From Myxococcus sp. RHSTA-1-4 (GTDB taxonomy: Bacteria > Myxococcota > Myxococcia > Myxococcales > Myxococcaceae), in contig NZ_JAIQDG010000016.1 in NCBI RefSeq assembly GCF_020037125.1, positions 1 through 64,000 on the forward strand: a stretch of 64,000 bases of DNA, written 5' to 3'. The position numbers were made by a program, and so were the translations under genes. The notes below the pieces were generated by a model. The model was not told where the DNA came from and ran no database searches. It saw nothing but the letters and a program-made list of their open reading frames with translations. This document shows, piece after piece, positions 40,769-57,671 of the stretch. The first letter of the stretch is position 1. Each line of letters starts with the position of its first letter.

Positions 40769-41590
40769 GCTGACGGCGGCAAGTCCGCGGCGAGCCTGTG
40801 CGGCGAGCGGTCCGTGCACACGATGGAGCGCGCGCGGATGTCGGTGGGGTCCGCGCGCTCCTTGGCATCGCGGTGGGGCGCATGTCCGCACAAGTCGTGA
40901 GCGCACGCACGGCCGAGTCGATGGATGGGTGTCTCTCCGCTCGCGGATGCGTGATGCCCCAGCGTGCTCCACGTGGAACGTGGAGGCGTGGCACGGCTGT
41001 TCGGGCATGGGCCTGTGCGCAACCAGGGGGACCTCCACATCAGGGCTCGTCCACCGGCTCCACGGAGTGCGGTGCGCACCGGCGGGGCCGTGGAGGTGTG
41101 TGGTGCTCCGGGAGCTCGCTCCACGGAGTGCGGTGCGTATCGGCGGGAGCGTGGAGGTGTGGTGGTGGTGCGGGAGCGCGCGCGGAGTCTGCCCCACCCG
41201 GAGCTGACTGCATGGCGCCGGTCGCGCGCGAGCAGGCGGGACGCGCCGCTCCACGGTGCCGGGCTGTTCGATGAGACGCGAGCACGCAGGTGCGGTGCGG
41301 GTGCTGCTCGCGCTGCTGCGAGCCGCTGATGGAGGGCAGTCGGTGCGCAGGGGAGGACGCGTCGGGACTGTCAGCATGAGCAGCGGCGTGATGCGCATCG
41401 GGTTCCGAGCTGGCGACGTGTGACCTCGGCTCCAGCTGGAACACGACGGCGGGGATGTCGGGGCACGGGAAGGGGCGGGGCCGTGGATGGAGCTGAGCGT
41501 TGGAGATGCTGACGCGCGTGCCAGGTGGAACGAGAAGGCATGGCCCTGCGGCTTCACGCTCCTGATGGCGCCGCGGGTCGCTGCTTCACG

Positions 41591-41762
41591 GTGCCCGAGC
41601 GCGGTGGAGACCGAGCCCCGGCGAGCGCGGACACCTCGAAGACGTGGGCATGCGAATGGACGGGTGCTCCTTGGCGGTGCCCGAGCGCGGTGGAGACCGA
41701 GCCCCGGCGAGCGCGGACACCTCGAAGACGTGGGCATGCGAATGGACGTGTGCTCCTTCGCG
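41591..41762. repeat. 86-bp tandem duplication at the left edge of the parS array
   Basis: GTGCCCGAGCGCGGTGGAGA begins units at 41591 and 41677; the two differ at two positions. The unit carries no good parS core and lies just before the first clustered perfect site. Confidence 0.8.
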
Positions 41763-42195
41763 GTGCCACTGCGGTGCGCCCGTTCCACGTGGAACGCGGC
41801 GGCGAGATGGCAGCGCGTTCACGGCGGCGCGGAGGCGCAGGCCGCGTCGGGCGGAACTGGCGTTCCACGTGGAACGAGGAGGCGGGATGGCGGTGTGTTC
41901 ACGCGGAGCCGCGGGATGAAGGCCGGAGCGTTCCACGTGGAACGTGGACGCAAGGCAGAGGCGGTCGCCCCTGGTGGAGGTGAGGGGGCCGACCGCTGCA
42001 GTGCCGCAGCGGCGGGTGCGCGCGTTCCAGGTGACGCTCGGATGGGTGATGGCGCCGTGCTCGTGGTGGAGGTGAAGGGCGCTGGCCGGTGCCGCGGTCC
42101 ACCTGCACTGACGGGTGCGCGCGTTCCGGGGGGGAGCGCGGATGGGCGATGGCGCCGTGTTCGTGGTGGAAGTGAAGGGCGCTGGTCAGCGCCGC

Positions 42196-42579
42196 GTTCC
42201 ACGTGGAACGTGGATGGGGAGACGGCGCCACGTTCAGGGTGGAAGACGAAGGGCGCTGGCTGGAGCACTGCCGCGCGTTGGCCGGTGCCGCGTTCCACGT
42301 GGAACGTGGATGGGGAGACGGCGCCACGTTCAGGGTGGAAGGCGAGGGGCGCTGGCTGGAGCACTGCCGCGCGTTGGCCGGTGCCGCGTTCCACGTGGAA
42401 CGTGGATGGGGAGACGGCGCCACGTTCAGGGTGGAAGGCGAGGGGCGCTGGCCGGAGCACTGCCGCGCGTTGGCCGGTGCCGCGTTCCACGTGGAACGTG
42501 GATGGGGAGACGGCGCCAGGTCCAGGGTGGAAGGCGAAGGGGGCTGGCCGGAGCATGGCGGTGCCGGACACGGCCAGCG
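42196..42579. repeat. Tandem 96-bp parS-containing units
   Basis: Four nearly identical units start at parS 42196, 42292, 42388 and 42484, each parS followed by GTGGATGGGGAGACGGCGCC and a shared spacer. Only a few bases differ, so these are recent tandem duplications. Confidence 0.9.
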
Positions 42580-43200
42580 TTCCACGTGGAACGAGGATGG
42601 AGAGCAGGCGTCACGTTCATGGTGGAAGTGAAGGACGCCGGCCGGAGCATGGCGGTGCCGGACACGGCCAGCGTTCCACGTGAAACGTGGATGCGAAGGA
42701 GCAGCGCGCGTTCATGGCGGTCGTGATGCTCGGAGCTTCGCGGAGCCGGTTCAGCACCACGTGGTGCACGTGAAGTGGAGCCATGGGTTCTCGCGTCGCG
42801 GGCAGGGATGCGAGTGCCCCCGTTCGGCGCGGCTTCGGACCGGGGGGCGTTCCACGTGGAACGCGCATGGAGGTCGACCGTCACCGTGCTCACGCCGCTG
42901 ACGTGAAGTCCGCGCCGGCACCGGGTGCGCGAAGCGGAGCGTGCGGCGGGATGCGGCGACAGACCTCGCGCGTGTCCTCTTGCTGCACCATCAGCGGTTC
43001 GCGTGCCGCGCGTTCCACGTGGAACACGAACGGTGGGGAGTCCTTCAGATGCGCGGGGACCGGAGTCGCAATGGATGCGGCAAGTCCCTGATGACCGCTG
43101 GCGAGCGTTCCACGTGGAACGTGGCTGGTGTCGGACGGGCTCGAGGTTCATCGGCTGAACATGCGGCGCGGTGCTCCAGTTCGATGAGGACCTCCGGCGC

Positions 43201-43482
43201 GTTCCACGTGGAACGTGGAGGTGGCGTGGGGCGCATGCGCATCGGTTCGGCATGGGGCTTCGCGACACCGGCAGGTGAAGGCATCCGGCGGCGCGTTCCA
43301 CGTGGAACGTGGAGGTGGCGTGGGGCGCATGCGCACCGGTTCGGCATGAGGCTTCGCGGCACCGGCAGGTGAAGGCATCCGGCGGCGCGTTCCACGTGGA
43401 ACGTGGAGGCGGTGATGGCGTCCCGCGTCCGCTGGTCCGGAATGAGCACTGATGCCGCGAGGAGAAGGCGTTCGTCCGCACG
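43201..43482. repeat. Tandem 94-bp parS-containing units
   Basis: Units at 43201 and 43295 share GTGGAGGTGGCGTGGGGCGC and the following spacer almost fully; the unit at 43389 keeps the parS and first bases only. A second local duplication with a spacer unlike the 96-bp family. Confidence 0.85.
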
Positions 43483-43834
43483 TGCCACGCGGAGCGCTCC
43501 GGGCGTTGATGGCTCCGCGTCCCGTGCGCTCGTTGATGTGCGCGGCGTTCGTCCAATGCTCGGGGGCGTTCACGCGTTCCAGGTGGAGGCTCGCGCGCTC
43601 GCGAGGTCGACATGGGCTCTGTGCCCGGGTTGGTGCACGCGGCTGACGGCGTGTTCCACGTGAAACGAGGATGCGGCGGGAGGCTCACGCGCTCGCGAGG
43701 CGGCAGGAGTCCTCGTGCCTGCACCGGCGACGCGGCGGGCTGCACGTTCCACGTGGAACGCGGATGAGGTCAGGTGGCTCGCGAAGCCGACGAGGCTCGC
43801 GGTGCCTTCATCCGGTGCGGAGAGTCGTCGGCAC

Positions 43835-44011
43835 GTTCCACGTGGAACGCGGATGAGGGCGGGGCTCGCGTGGAAGGGACGCGAGTCCGGGTGCCTTCAT
43901 CCGGTGCGAGAGTCGTCGGCACGTTCCACGTGGAACGCGGATGAGGGCGGGGCTCGCGTGGAAGGGACGCGAGTCCGGGTGTCTTCACCCGGTGGGCACG
44001 ACTGGCGGCAC
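43835..44011. repeat. Tandem 88-bp parS-containing units
   Basis: Units at 43835 and 43923 share parS plus GCGGATGAGGGCGGGGCTCG and the remaining spacer with few changes. This is the third local duplication family in the array. Confidence 0.85.
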
Positions 44012-44788
44012 GTTCCACGTGGAACGCGGACGGCCCGCACGCATGCGCCGGCCACGTGAGGTCTGGTCGCTCCGCTGAAGAAGGCCGGCTGCGCGCCTCG
44101 CGTGTAGACCGGAGGGTCTGCGCATCCATGTGCCCGGCATGCGCGGACGCTGGCCTCGGGTGCGGATGCGCCCTCGTTCCACGTGGAACACGGATGGCGC
44201 TGAAGAGGGCTCGTGCCGACGTGCCTGGCATGGGCCGGAGCAGGTCTCGGGGGTGGGGGCCTCCGGCTCCCCGTTCCACGTGGAACACGGCTGAAGGTGG
44301 CGAGGCCGCGTGCTCACGCGGTGCCCGGGTCTGGCCGCTGGCGCTAAGTCTTCGGGCTCTGCGTTCCACGTGGAACGCGGGTGGAGCTGAAGCGGTGGGT
44401 GCCGTCGCGGCCTCGACATGGCACCAGGGGCGGCCGGCGCACGCCGCGGACACCCCGCCCGTTCCATGTGGAGTCGCGATGGAGTTGCGCCTCCGCGTGC
44501 TCACGGGGGCGGCATGGCGGCCGACGCGGCGGAGGATGACGGGCACTCGTGCGTTCCACGTGGAACGTGTTGGAGGTGGGCCGTTCGATGCTTCACGAAT
44601 TCGATGCACGGTCGCGCGCCGCCTCCCGTGGCGGCGATTGATTCAGGACGCGGATGAGTCCTGCCGCGGAACCCCCTCGGCCACGCAGTCGCGGGACTGG
44701 TACCTCGGCGTGTTCGGACTGCCCGGAGCATGAGGGCAGTCCAGGCCCCGGCCTCTGTCTCCCAGACCACGGCCTCTCGCCACATCAG

Positions 44789-45020
44789 CCCTCGGGCCGC
44801 CCATCTCCGGAATGGAGCTTCCATTCCGGAGACCTGACAGGCCCTCCTGCTCCAGGTCCCGCCTTCCCGTCAGGTCTGCCCTCGGGCCGCCCATCTATGG
44901 AATGGAGCTTCCATTCCGGAGACCTGCCAGGCCCTCCCGCTCCAGGTCCCGCCTTCCCGTCAGGTCTGCCCCGGGCCGCCCGGGTCTGGAATGGAGCTTC
45001 CGTTCCAAGTGGGCGTGCAA
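44789..45020. repeat. 90-bp tandem repeat with a different inverted repeat
   Basis: Three units start near 44789, 44879 and 44969. Each contains GGAATGGAGCTTCC(A/G)TTCC; the first has perfect 12-bp arms CTCCGGAATGGA / TCCATTCCGGAG around GCT. It is distinct from parS and lies between the array and parA. The binding protein, if any, is unknown. Confidence 0.85.
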
Positions 45021-46606: not shown

Positions 46607-46634
46607 CCCCTGGGTTCCTCGTGGAACCCCGGGG
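46607..46634. promoter_or_regulatory. parS-like hairpin upstream of parA
   Basis: CCCCTGGGTTCC-TCGT-GGAACCCCGGGG has 12-bp arms with one mismatch and holds GTTCCTCGTGGAAC, one base off parS. It lies about 270 bases before parA and 46 before a TATATA box. It could be a ParB-responsive operator or a leader hairpin. Confidence 0.5.
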
Positions 46635-46903
46635 ACCGAGGCCCGAAATGCGGGCGGAGCCGCTCCTGGCCGCATCCTTATATAGAGGGCTGACACGCGG
46701 GGCTCCCCAAGCCTCCCCGGCCCCCCTCCAACCGGCCCGGAAATCCACTTCCCGGCCCCGGGAATCCCGGTCCCGGAAGGCGGCCAGGCAAGGGCCGCCG
46801 TGAATTTGATCCGATCCCAAACCGCGTGCTAGCAGCGTGGATCAGCGCGCAACCGTGCGCTGCTTCACGCGCGGGGCCCTGGCACCGGCCGGGGAGAGAG
46901 AGG

Positions 46904-47704
46904 ATGGGCCACGTGGGTCGTATCATCTGCATCTCCAACCAGAAGGGCGGCGTGGGGAAGACCACCACCGCCATCAACCTTGCCGCGAGCCTGGCTTCCG
47001 CCGAGCGCCGCACGCTCCTGGTGGACATGGACCCGCAAGGCAACGCGGGCAGCGGGCTCGGCCTCAAGCGCGACGACCTCCACGGCACCGTCTACGACGC
47101 GCTCCTCAACGGCCGCCCCATGAAGGAGCTGCTCCACCCCACGGAGCTGCGCTACCTCCAGGTCGTCCCCGCCACGCCGGACCTCACCGGCGCCGAGGTG
47201 GAGCTGGTCGGCCAGGAGCGCCGCGAGTTCCGTCTCCGCGATGCGCTCCGCCCGCTGGCCGCCGAGTACGACTACATCATCATCGACTGCCCGCCCTCGC
47301 TCGGCCTGCTCACGCTCAACGCGCTGGCCGCCGCGGACTCGGTGCTCATCCCGCTGCAGTGCGAGTACTACGCGCTCGAGGGTCTCTCGCAGCTCACGCA
47401 CACCATCGACCTGGTGAAGCAGGGCCTCAACCCGGCCCTGCAGATGGAGGGCATCCTCCTCACCATGTTCGACTCGCGGGCCAACATCGCCCACCAGGTC
47501 GTCGAGGAGGTGCGCGGCTACTTCAAGAAGCAGGTCTTCGAGGTCGTCGTGCCGCGCAACGTGCGCCTGTCCGAGTGCCCGTCCTTCGGCAAGCCCATCA
47601 TCCTCTATGACATCAAGTCGAAGGGCTGTGAGAGCTACCTGGCGCTCGGCCGGGAGCTCATGAAGCGGGACACCCCCAAGGCGCCCCGCCGGCGAGTGGC
47701 CTGA
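46904..47704 (+). CDS. parA: Chromosome-partitioning ATPase ParA
   Basis: The 266-residue Walker-type ATPase has the deviant P-loop KGGVGKTTTAINLAASLA, the Walker A' region LLVDMDPQGNAGSGLG and Walker B YIIIDCPPSLGLLTLNAL. It binds DNA as an ATP dimer and pulls ParB-parS complexes. The ATG at 46904 follows GGAGAGAGAGG; a longer frame exists upstream without support. parB follows after 101 bases. The leader carries a parS-like hairpin. Confidence 0.97.
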   Translation: MGHVGRIICISNQKGGVGKTTTAINLAASLASAERRTLLVDMDPQGNAGSGLGLKRDDLHGTVYDALLNGRPMKELLHPTELRYLQVVPATPDLTGAEVELVGQERREFRLRDALRPLAAEYDYIIIDCPPSLGLLTLNALAAADSVLIPLQCEYYALEGLSQLTHTIDLVKQGLNPALQMEGILLTMFDSRANIAHQVVEEVRGYFKKQVFEVVVPRNVRLSECPSFGKPIILYDIKSKGCESYLALGRELMKRDTPKAPRRRVA

Positions 47705-47805
47705 GCTGAAGATATCTGGAAGCAGCGTGGGCTCTCCGAGGTTGCCGGGGGGCCCTTGCCGTTCATGGCCGCCGTGACAGTGCGCGCGGCGCTGGAGTCC
47801 ACCAC

Positions 47806-48702
47806 GTGGTGAAAGCAGACATGCAGAAGCGGGCGCTTGGCCGAGGGCTCTCCGCCCTCATCCCCCAGGCCGCCCCCGCCCCCGCCGGCAAGGCCGCCGA
47901 GCAGGCCGCCAACAAGGCGGGCGTCATCAAGCTCCCCATCGAGTCCATCCACCGCGACAAGGAGCAGCCGCGCCAGCACTTCGACGAGGAGAAGCTCAAG
48001 GAGCTCACCGAGTCCATCAAGGTGCAGGGCGTGCTCCAGCCCATCCTCGTCCGCAAGGACGGTGACGGCTACCGCATCATCGCGGGCGAGCGCCGCTGGC
48101 GCGCCTCCCAGGCCGCGGGCCTCAAGGAGGTTCCGGCCATCGTCAAGGAGGTGACGGAGGTCCAGGCCTTCGAGCTGGCCCTCGTGGAGAACCTCCAGCG
48201 CGCGGACCTCAACCCCATCGAAGAGGCCGAGGGCTACAAGCGCCTCGTCGAGGAGTTCAAGCTCACGCAGGAGCAGGTCAGCCTGCGGGTGGGCAAGGAG
48301 CGCTCCACGGTGGCCAACGCCCTGCGGCTGCTCGCGCTGCCCGCGGACGTGAAGGCCATGGTGGCGGACGGCTCGCTCAGCATGGGCCATGCGAGGGCCC
48401 TCCTGGGCGTGCCCCGCCTGCCCGAGCTGCAGAACCTGGCGAAGCAGGTCACGGAAAAGAAGCTCTCCGTGCGTGACACGGAGCGGCTCGTCCAGCAGAG
48501 TCGCTCCCACGGCAAGAAGGATGCGGGCAAGTCGGCGCCGAAGCAGAGCCCGCAGGTGAAGTCACTGGTGGAGGAGCTTCAGCGGCGGCTGGGGACGAAG
48601 GTTCGGCTCACCGAACGAAGCCCCGGAAAGGGCACCATCGAGGTGGACTTCTTCTCGTACGATGACCTCGACCGGCTCTTGAAGCTTCTCAGGAAGGAGT
48701 AG
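47806..48702 (+). CDS. parB: Chromosome-partitioning protein ParB
   Basis: The 298-residue product has the ParB N-terminal CTPase domain (IHRDKEQPRQHFDEEKL; GERRWRASQAAGL; ENLQRADLNPIEEAEGY), the helix-turn-helix region LTQEQVSLRVGKERSTVANA and a C-terminal dimerisation domain (VEVDFFSYDDLDRLLKLL-like end). It binds parS and spreads as a CTP clamp. GTG at 47806 was used, with GGAG eight bases before; an ATG at 47821 is the alternative. A palindrome CACCACGTGGTG overlaps the start. Confidence 0.97.
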   Translation: MVKADMQKRALGRGLSALIPQAAPAPAGKAAEQAANKAGVIKLPIESIHRDKEQPRQHFDEEKLKELTESIKVQGVLQPILVRKDGDGYRIIAGERRWRASQAAGLKEVPAIVKEVTEVQAFELALVENLQRADLNPIEEAEGYKRLVEEFKLTQEQVSLRVGKERSTVANALRLLALPADVKAMVADGSLSMGHARALLGVPRLPELQNLAKQVTEKKLSVRDTERLVQQSRSHGKKDAGKSAPKQSPQVKSLVEELQRRLGTKVRLTERSPGKGTIEVDFFSYDDLDRLLKLLRKE

Positions 48703-48705
48703 GAC

Positions 48706-49155
48706 GTGGCGCTCCTTGGCGGGAAAAAAGACGAAGCACCCAGCAGCAAGCCCCTGTTCAGGCGGGAGGAGGAATCCGTGTCGCAGCGCTCTGGTGAAGT
48801 CCACACGCTCCTGGGCAAGGGGAGCGAGTTCGAAGGCAAGCTCACCTTCGAAGGGCAGGTCCGCATCGACGGCAAGTTCAACGGCCAGATCATCACCAAG
48901 GACGTGCTCGTCATTGGTGATGGCGCCAAGGTCCAGGCCGAAATCCAGGCGGGCACCGTCATCATCAACGGCCAGGTCGAAGGCAACGTGAAGGCCACCC
49001 AAATCATCGAGCTGAAGACGCCCGGCCGCGTGAAGGGCAACCTCGAGACGCCGTCGCTGTCCATGGACCGCGGCGTCATCTTCGAGGGCTCGCTGAAGAT
49101 GGAGAACCTGGGCACCGGTGCCCGGCCTCCGCCTCCCGGTGGCGAAAAGAAGTAG
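48706..49155 (+). CDS. bacM: Bactofilin, BacM-like
   Basis: The 149-residue protein has a bactofilin beta-helix core of repeated hydrophobic turns (LLGKGSEFEGKLTFEGQVRI, VLVIGDGAKVQAEIQAGTVI, GQVEGNVKATQIIEL) flanked by a polar N terminus (residues 1-30) and a Pro-rich tail. Bactofilins polymerise without nucleotides; the Myxococcus xanthus gene beside parB is bacM, needed for rod shape. Here it starts at a GTG three bases after parB, so it is co-transcribed. Symbol by position and similarity. Confidence 0.9.
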   Translation: MALLGGKKDEAPSSKPLFRREEESVSQRSGEVHTLLGKGSEFEGKLTFEGQVRIDGKFNGQIITKDVLVIGDGAKVQAEIQAGTVIINGQVEGNVKATQIIELKTPGRVKGNLETPSLSMDRGVIFEGSLKMENLGTGARPPPPGGEKK

Positions 49156-55790: not shown

Positions 55791-57671
55791 TCACCACCGG
55801 TCGACCAGCACATATTCGTCACCTCGCAACCAGATGGGCTTCTTCGGGGTGGACCCCTGGGCATGGAGGACCTTGCGCCGCTTCACGTTCCCCACCCGGG
55901 CACAGATGGGGATGCGGCTCGGCGAGGACTTCCAGGTGCGTGGGATGTCGGCCTCGAACCACTGGATTTCCGCTTCATCCCCGTCCACCCACGCCCATCC
56001 ATACAGAATGGTGCCGTTCGGGAAGGCACGGTCATCGCGGGTAATGCTCGTGATGACGCCCGTTCTCAGGCCTCCAACGAGGATGTCACCGTCGACGTAG
56101 TCCTGGTGGTAGTCGAGCTGGACGGCGCCTACCAGGGGCAGCTCGTACGGCTCTCCGTACTTCCGCAACTCCTCCTTCATGAGCCGCAGCGCAGTGGGGG
56201 GACAGGGCTGGTCCCTGCGAGGTTGCGCTCCCACCGGAGTCGCATAGGGCGTGCTCGCGCAGTGGAGGCTGGCGGCGGCCGCGAAGCCCGCGATGCAGAC
56301 CGGCAGTGAGCGCGTCAGCTTGGAGGTTCCAGGAGTCGTCGGGTTCGTCACGGTCTCTTCTCTCGTGGTGGGGGAGGGCTCCGAAGGTTCCGCATCCATA
56401 CCCGAAGCCGAGAGGGGTGGTGCCGCCATGGAGGCAGTGGGCTCTGGAGCGGCGTGCGAGGCAGGGGCCCGGGCCAGGAAGGTTTCATGGAGCGAGGGCG
56501 GGCCCGCGCTCTTCCACCCGAGCACGGCCAGCAGACCGAGGAGCACCCCCGCGCCCATCAGGTGCCACGAGGCGAAACGGCGGGAGCGGAGCACGGGAGT
56601 GAATGGGGACGCAGATGGGGTGGAAGAACGCGCGGGGTGGCGGGCCTGGGCCGGAGCGGCCGGGGGGCGTCGGCGGGTAGGAAGCAGGTGCGGCGCGGCG
56701 CCCGCGGGAGCCAACCGCGTGGGGGATGATGGAGCGGGCTCTTCCGTGGACTGCGGGGGGAACAAGGGCTTGTCCCACTCGGGACCGGCGGCGCGTAGCG
56801 CTTCCTCGATGGCGGCGTGCAGTGCCTCGCCATGCGGGAACCGGTCCCTGGCTCGCTTCTGGAGCAGCCGCAGCACGATGGCTTCCAGCGGGGTGGGCAC
56901 CCGCGGGTTCACCGTCGAAGGAAGAGGCGGCAGGCGCTCCTCGATGTGCTCGATGAGCACCTCCCGTGGGAGGGTGGGCGAGAAGGCCGGCACACCCGCC
57001 AACACTTCGTAGAACGTCACCCCCAGGGCGTACAGGTCATCCGTCGCCCGGAAGGGATAGCGTGCGTCGGGCCGCGTGTAGTGCTCGCGGTGGAAGCGCA
57101 GGGCCTCCGGGGCGCGGTAGTGCGGTGTGCCAGGAGGAAGCACGCTCTCGGTGAGTGGAGGCGCCTCTGCGTGGTCCGCGCTGCCGAAGTCCACCAGGAT
57201 GGGCTCCTCGTCCACGGCGCGCACGAGGATGTTGGATGGCTTGAGGTCGCGGTGGAAGACATCACGCGCATGGAGCTCCCCCAGCGTCCTCGCGAGCCGG
57301 GCGAAGAGACGTGCCACCCCGCGTGCCGACGGGCGCACCTGCCTCACCCATCCGGACAGGGTGGTGCCCTCCACGAAGTCCATGACCACGTAGTGGTAGC
57401 CGGTCCGTGCATCGGGCCACCGGCCGTGGGACCAGACTCGGACCACGTTCGGGTGGATGGCCTGGAGCAGACAGGCCAGCTCCTTCATGGCCCGCGCGTC
57501 GGTGTGATTGAGGTCGTCACTGCCCGGGCTTCGCAGGGCGAACTTGAGGGCGTGGAGCCGCCCCTCGTGTTCCACCTGGAACACGATGCCGAAGGAGCCC
57601 GAGCCGAGCTGCGCCAGGATGCGCCAGGGGCCCACCGACATGCCGGGGTGGAGCGCCAGTGGGTGTGTCAT
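55791..57671 (-). CDS. Membrane Ser/Thr protein kinase with C-terminal exported domain, copy 2
   Basis: About 626 residues from the ATG at 57671; a TTG two codons earlier is possible. It has a P-loop (LGSGSFGIVFQVE), lysine in LHALKFA, catalytic HRDLKPSN (near 140) and a normal DFG (LVDFGSADH). A Pro/Ala-rich linker leads to a membrane helix (LMGAGVLLGLLAVLGW, near 370). A lipobox-like AASLHCAS near 477 starts the exported domain, which shares DGTLLYG/NGTILYG and PxCxxxGN with copy 1. It directly follows the DUF2381 gene. Confidence 0.88.
   Translation of the reverse strand: MTHPLALHPGMSVGPWRILAQLGSGSFGIVFQVEHEGRLHALKFALRSPGSDDLNHTDARAMKELACLLQAIHPNVVRVWSHGRWPDARTGYHYVVMDFVEGTTLSGWVRQVRPSARGVARLFARLARTLGELHARDVFHRDLKPSNILVRAVDEEPILVDFGSADHAEAPPLTESVLPPGTPHYRAPEALRFHREHYTRPDARYPFRATDDLYALGVTFYEVLAGVPAFSPTLPREVLIEHIEERLPPLPSTVNPRVPTPLEAIVLRLLQKRARDRFPHGEALHAAIEEALRAAGPEWDKPLFPPQSTEEPAPSSPTRLAPAGAAPHLLPTRRRPPAAPAQARHPARSSTPSASPFTPVLRSRRFASWHLMGAGVLLGLLAVLGWKSAGPPSLHETFLARAPASHAAPEPTASMAAPPLSASGMDAEPSEPSPTTREETVTNPTTPGTSKLTRSLPVCIAGFAAAASLHCASTPYATPVGAQPRRDQPCPPTALRLMKEELRKYGEPYELPLVGAVQLDYHQDYVDGDILVGGLRTGVITSITRDDRAFPNGTILYGWAWVDGDEAEIQWFEADIPRTWKSSPSRIPICARVGNVKRRKVLHAQGSTPKKPIWLRGDEYVLVDRW

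What the first reader, a model, noticed from the sequence alone, without database searches (positions are those of the whole stretch)
41930..44566. parS sites sit on a roughly 95-bp register with decayed copies in empty slots
Of 24 successive intervals among the 25 sites, 15 are 88-97 bp; four more are near two or three units (176, 190, 264, 266). Several gaps hold degraded palindromes about one unit from a neighbour: 42024 (GTTCCAGGTG), 42754 (GCACCACGTGGTGC), 43482 (GTGCCACGCGGAGC), 43576 (GTTCCAGGTGGAGG) and 44461 (GTTCCATGTGGAGT). About 95 bp is nine helical turns, which would put sites on one DNA face. This suggests birth-and-death of sites within a spacing constraint.
Basis: partly seen in the sequence, partly recalled or inferred. 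Interest (0 to 1): 0.75.

Follow-up and report, generated by a model that had tools for sequence, protein, structure and literature searches.

The report
Bacterial centromere built from tandem repeats
The evenly spaced ParB-binding sites beside this bacterium's chromosome-segregation genes look like the product of repeated tandem duplication, each species group with its own repeat length, and not of a rule that keeps sites on one face of the DNA helix.

Summary
The spacing is real: 15 of 24 intervals are 88-97 bp, and degraded sites occupy several gaps. It is the parS cluster upstream of parAB in a Myxococcus/Pyxidicoccus genome, of the kind known from M. xanthus. Blocks of the array are head-to-tail tandem repeats of 100, 96, 94 and 88 bp, and parS-less repeats of 61, 86 and 90 bp lie beside it. 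Across relatives the modal interval follows clades, 74-136 bp in 28 genomes. No 10.5-bp phase was found, here or in 586 pooled intervals. In ten species pairs indels are not depleted between sites, and interval length drifts about as nearby non-coding DNA does. The parS core is conserved: 74 of 100 orthologous slots are intact in both genomes, about 16 expected neutrally. One relative shows clear higher-order repeats. I read it as a small satellite-like centromere: duplication makes sites, mutation kills them, selection keeps enough of them. Nine paper searches (capped lists) showed no such description; a 2020 review lists what drives parS clustering as open.

The parts
41782..44566 (+). main parS array: 22 perfect GTTCCACGTGGAAC and 2 one-mismatch sites (42673, 43653), head to tail
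   Evidence: a G seven bases after the core in 26 of 26 sites of the 17-kb stretch, with no matching C on the other side, shows one orientation
42013..42202 (+). tandem repeat, period 100, holding the degraded slots 42024 and about 42123
   Evidence: TRF; spacer similarity z 8.4, identity 0.60
42191..42693 (+). tandem repeat, period 96, 5.3 copies, six parS sites
   Evidence: TRF; adjacent spacers 82-99% identical from 42196 to 42579
43195..43409 (+). tandem repeat, period 94, 2.3 copies, three parS sites
   Evidence: TRF
43742..44030 (+). tandem repeat, period 88, 3.3 copies, four parS sites
   Evidence: TRF
42024..42037 (+). degraded parS (4 mismatches), 94 bp after 41930
42754..42767 (+). 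palindrome GCACCACGTGGTGC in an empty slot; the slot is also empty in P. fallax (6 mismatches)
43482..43495 (+). degraded parS (3 mismatches), 93 bp after 43389
43576..43589 (+). degraded parS (3 mismatches), 94 bp after 43482 and 77 bp before 43653
44461..44474 (+). degraded parS (3 mismatches), 98 and 92 bp from its neighbours
41057..41181 (.). parS-less tandem repeat, period 61
   Evidence: TRF
41574..41767 (.). parS-less tandem repeat, period 86, next to the array
   Evidence: TRF
44788..45006 (.). parS-less tandem repeat, period 90, downstream of the array
   Evidence: TRF
40966..40979 (+). outlying parS-like site, 1 mismatch
46614..46627 (+). parA-proximal parS-like site, 1 mismatch, 212 bp before the listed parA ORF start; similar sites near this place in many relatives
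46826..47704 (+). parA
   Evidence: Pfam AAA_31 E 2.5e-65
47806..48702 (+). parB
   Evidence: Pfam ParB_N, HTH_ParB, ParB_C
48706..49155 (+). bactofilin gene
   Evidence: Pfam PF04519 E 3.5e-29

Best explanation
This is the chromosomal parS centromere of a Myxococcus/Pyxidicoccus bacterium, organised as a small satellite-like tandem array. Units of parS plus spacer are made by local head-to-tail duplication in a long non-coding region that also duplicates stretches without parS. The near-constant interval is the inherited length of the unit that was copied. Point mutation kills sites and indels slowly change interval lengths. Selection conserves the parS core and, by inference, the number of working sites, but not (or only weakly) their distance, and not helical phase. 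Inferred function: each live site loads ParB clamps, which slide off, so many sites raise the loading rate and exact spacing matters little. Shown here: duplication units, degraded slots, periods that follow clades, core conservation, no indel depletion. Inferred: recombination or slippage as the duplication mechanism, and selection on site number. From papers: M. xanthus ParB binds consensus parS, a two-substitution site about ten times more weakly (PMC3778016, passages); clamps load, slide and detach from parS (PMC12462528, passages).
For: Tandem repeats of 100, 96, 94 and 88 bp carry the sites, and 61, 86 and 90-bp repeats without parS sit beside them. Adjacent spacers are up to 99% identical; mean spacer identity falls from 0.73 at neighbour distance 1 to 0.56-0.58 at distance 4-7. 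Ten of 21 spacers have a relative in the same genome and 1 of 21 in any of the other fetched loci, the P. fallax array not being among them then. Period follows clades: 74-136 bp in 28 genomes on a parB tree. Genome explains 31% of the variance of intervals (Kruskal p 9e-25, intervals within a genome not being independent; 33 genomes, 516 intervals). Ten species pairs: parS 127 substitutions in 2,772 sites, spacers 4,424 in 17,344; indels per substitution 0.140 in spacers, 0.110 outside, higher in spacers in 7 of 10 pairs. With coding DNA masked: 0.131 against 0.117, rms length change 6.38 against 6.44 bp, p = 0.97 at divergence 0.1-0.3 (119 spacers, 419 windows). 74 of 100 orthologous slots intact in both, about 15.7 expected. 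145 tandem-repeat arrays in 66 loci, 68 without parS.
Against: Several neighbouring G000 units have the same length but no clear spacer similarity (43012 against 43107, z 1.9; the units after 43482 and 43576 z 0.8). In G072, monomer B of the higher-order repeat does not resemble A or C (z 1.6 and 0.8) and the two monomers of a dimer do not resemble each other (z -0.7; null mean 1.3), yet all are 77-81 bp. These could be old duplicates, but a weak length constraint is not excluded. In all four divergence bins the rms length change is somewhat smaller in the array (1.41 against 3.51, 7.18 against 7.41, 6.30 against 7.68, 6.74 against 7.58 bp), although indel events per window are more. Only 349 of 1,143 sites lie in tandem repeats that TRF recognises. 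In some pairs core conservation is modest: 3 of 11 slots intact in both in G069/G072; parS 0.058 against spacer 0.114 in G066/G077. The indel test needs alignable spacers with both sites intact and cannot see weak constraint.
Confidence: 0.75

Rival explanations
1. Spacing constraint: sites are held about nine helical turns apart so that ParB dimers load on one face of the DNA; sites arise and die within that register.
For: 15 of 24 intervals at 88-97 bp; some unrelated-looking spacers have equal length; 4 of 11 degraded hits on register against an 8% base rate.
Against: No helical phase in G000 or in 586 pooled intervals; relatives at 77, 82, 105, 114 and 136 bp; indels not depleted and net length change about as in control DNA; gaps fall short of integer multiples.
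Confidence: 0.04
2. Loose constraint: site density or a minimum distance is selected, for example room for a loading ParB dimer or limits on clamp traffic, on top of tandem duplication.
For: In the main arrays of the genus intervals are rarely under about 50 bp; unrelated-looking units of equal length; slightly smaller rms length change in the array in each divergence bin.
Against: Relatives have sites 26-28 bp (G004, G007) and 37-38 bp apart (G041, G033); parS-less repeats in the same loci have overlapping periods, median 86.5 bp, so the size may be mutational; matched test p = 0.97.
Confidence: 0.16
3. Pure mutational by-product: the non-coding region duplicates readily and extra parS copies are neutral passengers.
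For: 68 of 145 tandem-repeat arrays in the fetched loci lack parS.
Against: parS cores change five times less than spacers (0.046 against 0.255 per site) and 74 of 100 orthologous slots stay intact against about 16 expected.
Confidence: 0.05

Closest known systems
M. xanthus parS cluster (PMC3778016, PMC3899335; passages read)
   Same: parS cluster upstream of parAB: 22 sites in 3 kb about 4 kb upstream of parA (PMC3899335), 24 sites in the other paper; same core; bactofilin gene at the locus
   Different: the passages I read report site number and ParB binding, not tandem duplication, period or degraded slots
Satellite DNA of eukaryotic centromeres, such as alpha satellite (recalled)
   Same: head-to-tail units with a protein-binding motif, copies more alike within a genome than between distant species, period that follows clades, higher-order repeats in one relative
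   Different: a few kb, not megabases; the binding motif is conserved; sequence-specific ParB instead of a CENP-A centromere
pSM19035 plasmid parS, contiguous heptad repeats (PMC9499535; passages read)
   Same: centromere made of repeated binding sites
   Different: there at least four contiguous repeats without a gap are needed and ParB is of the RHH family; here spacers are long and variable and ParB is of the HTH type

Membership tests
Chromosomal ParABS centromere | consensus parS palindrome in several copies | tested here: met
   22 perfect sites in the genome; 27 with at most one mismatch, all in this window
Chromosomal ParABS centromere | adjacent parA and parB | tested here: met
   Pfam ParB_N, HTH_ParB, ParB_C and ParA-type AAA_31
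Chromosomal ParABS centromere | close to oriC | not tested
   mnmG and rsmG lie upstream; about 30-35 kb from ori in M. xanthus by the papers
Chromosomal ParABS centromere | ParB binds the sites | not testable with these tools
   shown for M. xanthus consensus parS in the papers
Satellite-like tandem array | head-to-tail copies of one unit | tested here: met
   TRF blocks, oriented flanks, spacer similarity; several units no longer resemble their neighbours
Satellite-like tandem array | copies more alike within a genome than between species | tested here: met
   G000: 10 of 21 spacers with a relative within, 1 of 21 between; close species pairs do share spacers, and there the other species is often the better match
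Satellite-like tandem array | higher-order repeats | tested here: inconclusive
   clear in G072 (81/78/77 trimer run; 14 lag-3 identities 0.68-0.98 against 0.47-0.63 at lag 1); best lag is 1 in G000
Helically phased site array | intervals in a constant phase of the helix | tested here: not met
   Rayleigh tests
Helically phased site array | spacing conserved in relatives, or indels depleted | tested here: not met

The most novel reading that the evidence does not exclude
A bacterial centromere that evolves as satellite DNA and feeds its own growth: dense ParB loading near the origin promotes local tandem duplication (for example by fork stalling), so the array expands, homogenises and forms higher-order repeats while selection keeps only the core of each unit. 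Site number would then reflect a balance of duplication, decay and dosage selection.
Probability: 0.15. Interest if true: 0.8.

Novelty: new variant of a known kind. Interest (0 to 1): 0.55.

Why it matters
A 2020 review (PMC7333895; passages and section 13 read) asks why parS number varies, why sites lie close together, and what drives the clustering over time. In Myxococcaceae the answer appears to be tandem duplication with selection on the core, and dozens of genomes now give duplication and loss events to test it. It also suggests that ParB loading here needs no fixed spacing, as expected for sliding clamps, and it offers a small, genetically workable counterpart of satellite centromeres.

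Tried and rejected
Helical phasing: tested on intervals, on absolute positions and on intervals pooled over genomes; nothing clear. Rigid lattice with empty slots: residuals of the off-mode intervals do not fit.

A test of whether mutually non-homologous spacers within a genome share a length failed: single linkage merged nearly all spacers, and the permutation on what was left (12 genomes, 61 representatives) gave p = 0.07; I do not count it either way. First versions of the indel and length tests may have included coding DNA in the control; the length test and the indel ratio were repeated with coding DNA masked, with the same outcome. G075 reads N over part of its fetched stretch (assembly gap or withheld, I cannot tell); it is in one of the ten pairs and one of the nine. 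Leaving the G076/G075 pair out of the sums by hand gives 0.138 against 0.113 indels per substitution.

An asymmetric flank in G000 (G.GGATG after parS) looked like a second binding site; across the genus only the third base on each side is widely conserved, so in G000 it is probably shared ancestry.

Long alignments of the array to P. fallax are partly paralogous; I use only the stretch 42673-43107.

I first wrote that the array breaks short-read assemblies, with P. fallax as the example; on checking, its contigs break inside parB and its array is whole on the other contig, so I withdrew the claim.

Of 95 genomes with a ParB match, one is the window's own; 80 of the other 94 were fetched and 14 were left out because the contig holds little upstream of parB or the genome is distant. 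Three fetched pieces hold no site at all because the contig ends (G057, G024, G005); G057's array was then found on another contig.

Full report
WHAT IS THERE. The window (contig 42 of an 11.24-Mb, 134-contig genome) holds mnmG, rsmG, then a stretch of about 6 kb without a coding call between a YycE-like gene (ends 40768) and parA-parB-bactofilin (46826-49155). In that stretch lie 22 perfect GTTCCACGTGGAAC sites and two with one mismatch between 41782 and 44566; outliers with one mismatch are at 40966 and 46614, and one more lies outside the stretch at 57569. No other site with at most one mismatch exists in the genome as held: 27 of 27 are in this window. The closest relative held by ParB is G057 (98% identity over the 276 residues present), Pyxidicoccus fallax DSM 14698; the name follows from matching contig length and coordinates.

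Counts and coordinates are right, the regularity is far from chance, and degraded sites are enriched in the gaps. The spacing is nevertheless not a lattice: five of the 24 intervals fit no multiple and seven of eight off-mode intervals of the main array are 12-26 bp short of one.

WHERE THE REGULARITY COMES FROM. Tandem Repeats Finder gives blocks with periods 100, 96, 94 and 88 bp in the array, and repeats without parS of 61, 86 and 90 bp in the same non-coding stretch; seven of the eight repeats with a period of 55 bp or more in the whole window lie in this stretch. Neighbouring spacers are 82-99% identical inside the 96, 94 and 88-bp blocks and 60% in the 100-bp block. Mean spacer identity in G000 is 0.73 for neighbours and 0.56-0.58 four to seven units apart. 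The sites read the same way: the seventh base after the core is G in 26 of 26, without the mirror-image C. So the interval is most simply the length of the copied unit. Several other neighbouring units no longer resemble each other.

RELATIVES. Of 96 genomes of the family, 95 have a ParB match at E up to 1e-60, one of them the window's own; 80 of the other 94 parAB loci were fetched. The genus and its nearer relatives carry arrays, 18-46 sites in the 24 genus genomes counted, while 19 of the 20 loci most distant by ParB hold one to five sites, many of these pieces being short. Many arrays are quasi-regular, but periods differ: modal interval 94 in G000, 91 in P. fallax, 82-84 in four of the next five relatives (96 in the fifth, on 3 of 7 intervals), 74-83 in the eight genomes of the M. 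xanthus group, 77-78 in one clade of four, 94-95 in a further pair, 126-136 in the M. eversor/qinghaiensis/llanfair group, 97 and 114 in G055 and G070. The parB tree is only partly resolved (11 of 25 inner branches well supported). Genome identity explains 31% of the variance of intervals of 20-125 bp (33 genomes, 516 intervals; genomes whose intervals mostly exceed 125 bp are left out of that table). This is inheritance of unit length, not a universal 95 bp. In G072 a trimer of 81, 78 and 77 bp repeats about five times: 14 identities three units apart are 0.68-0.98 against 0.47-0.63 between neighbours, and a nearby dimer has copies 98-100% identical: a higher-order repeat in the sense used for alpha satellite (recalled). 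144 of 785 spacers in 43 genomes have a twin of at least 85% in their own genome. Tandem repeats of 30-260 bp are common in these loci with or without parS: 145 arrays in 66 loci, 77 with and 68 without.

IS SPACING CONSTRAINED? Helical phase: no signal in G000 intervals or absolute positions, and none clear in 586 pooled intervals at any period from 9.5 to 12 bp (largest nR2 2.9, at 9.5 bp). Indels: in ten species pairs the ratio of indels to substitutions is 0.140 between sites and 0.110 outside, so not depleted, and higher between sites in 7 of 10 pairs; with coding DNA masked 0.131 and 0.117. Net change of interval length: rms 6.38 bp for 111 intervals against 6.44 bp for 407 control windows (net changes over 30 bp left out); no difference at divergence 0.1-0.3 (64 against 193, p = 0.97). 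Bin by bin the rms change is somewhat smaller in the array in all four divergence bins (1.41 against 3.51, 7.18 against 7.41, 6.30 against 7.68, 6.74 against 7.58 bp), with more indel events per window. Some units of equal length also have no recognisable common spacer. Saturated old duplicates are the simpler reading, but a weak length preference remains possible.

SELECTION ON THE SITES. Substitutions per site in ten pairs: 0.046 in parS against 0.255 in spacers (sites were defined in one genome of each pair, which favours conservation). Counted from both sides, 74 of 100 orthologous slots with locally similar flanks are intact in both genomes against about 15.7 expected without selection (nine pairs, one genome used twice; range from 3 of 11 to 7 of 7). 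Most of the other 26 carry one to three mismatches in one genome; about three look like alignment offsets of an intact site. Against P. fallax, in the alignable stretch, intervals 81/95/163 correspond to 79/95/169; slot 42754 is empty in both; 43107 is intact here and degraded there.

MECHANISM. Most likely: duplication by slippage or unequal recombination creates units; each live site loads ParB clamps that slide away (PMC12462528 passages), so number and not spacing matters; redundancy lets single sites die. The duplication mechanism and the selection on number are inferred.

NOVELTY. The parS cluster is known in M. xanthus (PMC3778016, PMC3899335; passages). Nine paper searches (listings only, most of them capped) show no title or abstract start that describes chromosomal parS arrays as tandem-duplicated or satellite-like; subscription papers are mostly not held. 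A review asks what drives parS clustering (PMC7333895, section 13 read). I file it as a new variant of a known kind.

CAVEATS. Many genomes are drafts, this one included, and near-identical repeats may be collapsed, so copy number may be too low; I did not test this. Period, spacer and indel statistics use related genomes and related units, so their p-values are nominal.

Noticed in passing
parS flanks in 24 genomes of the genus, G000 included: The third base on each side of the 14-bp core is conserved symmetrically: C at -3 in 267 of 387 non-redundant sites (background 0.30) and G at +16 in 305 of 387 (background 0.37), a possible 20-bp extension of the parS palindrome.
   Followed up: partly
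46614-46627 and the same place in relatives: A parS-like site about 200 bp before parA: 19 of 27 genomes of the genus have one or more there with one or two mismatches and none has a perfect one, while many loci of other genera have a perfect site near that place: perhaps a weakened autoregulatory or ancestral site.
   Followed up: partly
44788-45006: A 90-bp tandem repeat without parS that contains the near-palindrome GGAATGGAGCTTCCATTCC.
   Followed up: no
41429 and 41518: Two degraded parS-like sites (3 and 2 mismatches) 89 bp apart upstream of the array, perhaps the remains of older units.
   Followed up: no
42159, 42232, 42328, 42424, 42615: A second parS-like motif (4 mismatches) 36 bp after each of five parS or degraded parS starts, copied with the units.
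   Followed up: no
parB hits of G057, G017, G019, G020, G027: Five draft contigs end or begin inside the first 35 codons of parB, a recurrent assembly break at one spot that is not the parS array.
   Followed up: no
L088: A record titled Comamonas sp. KCTC 72670 carries a Myxococcus-type parB (91% identity); the record name is probably wrong.
   Followed up: no
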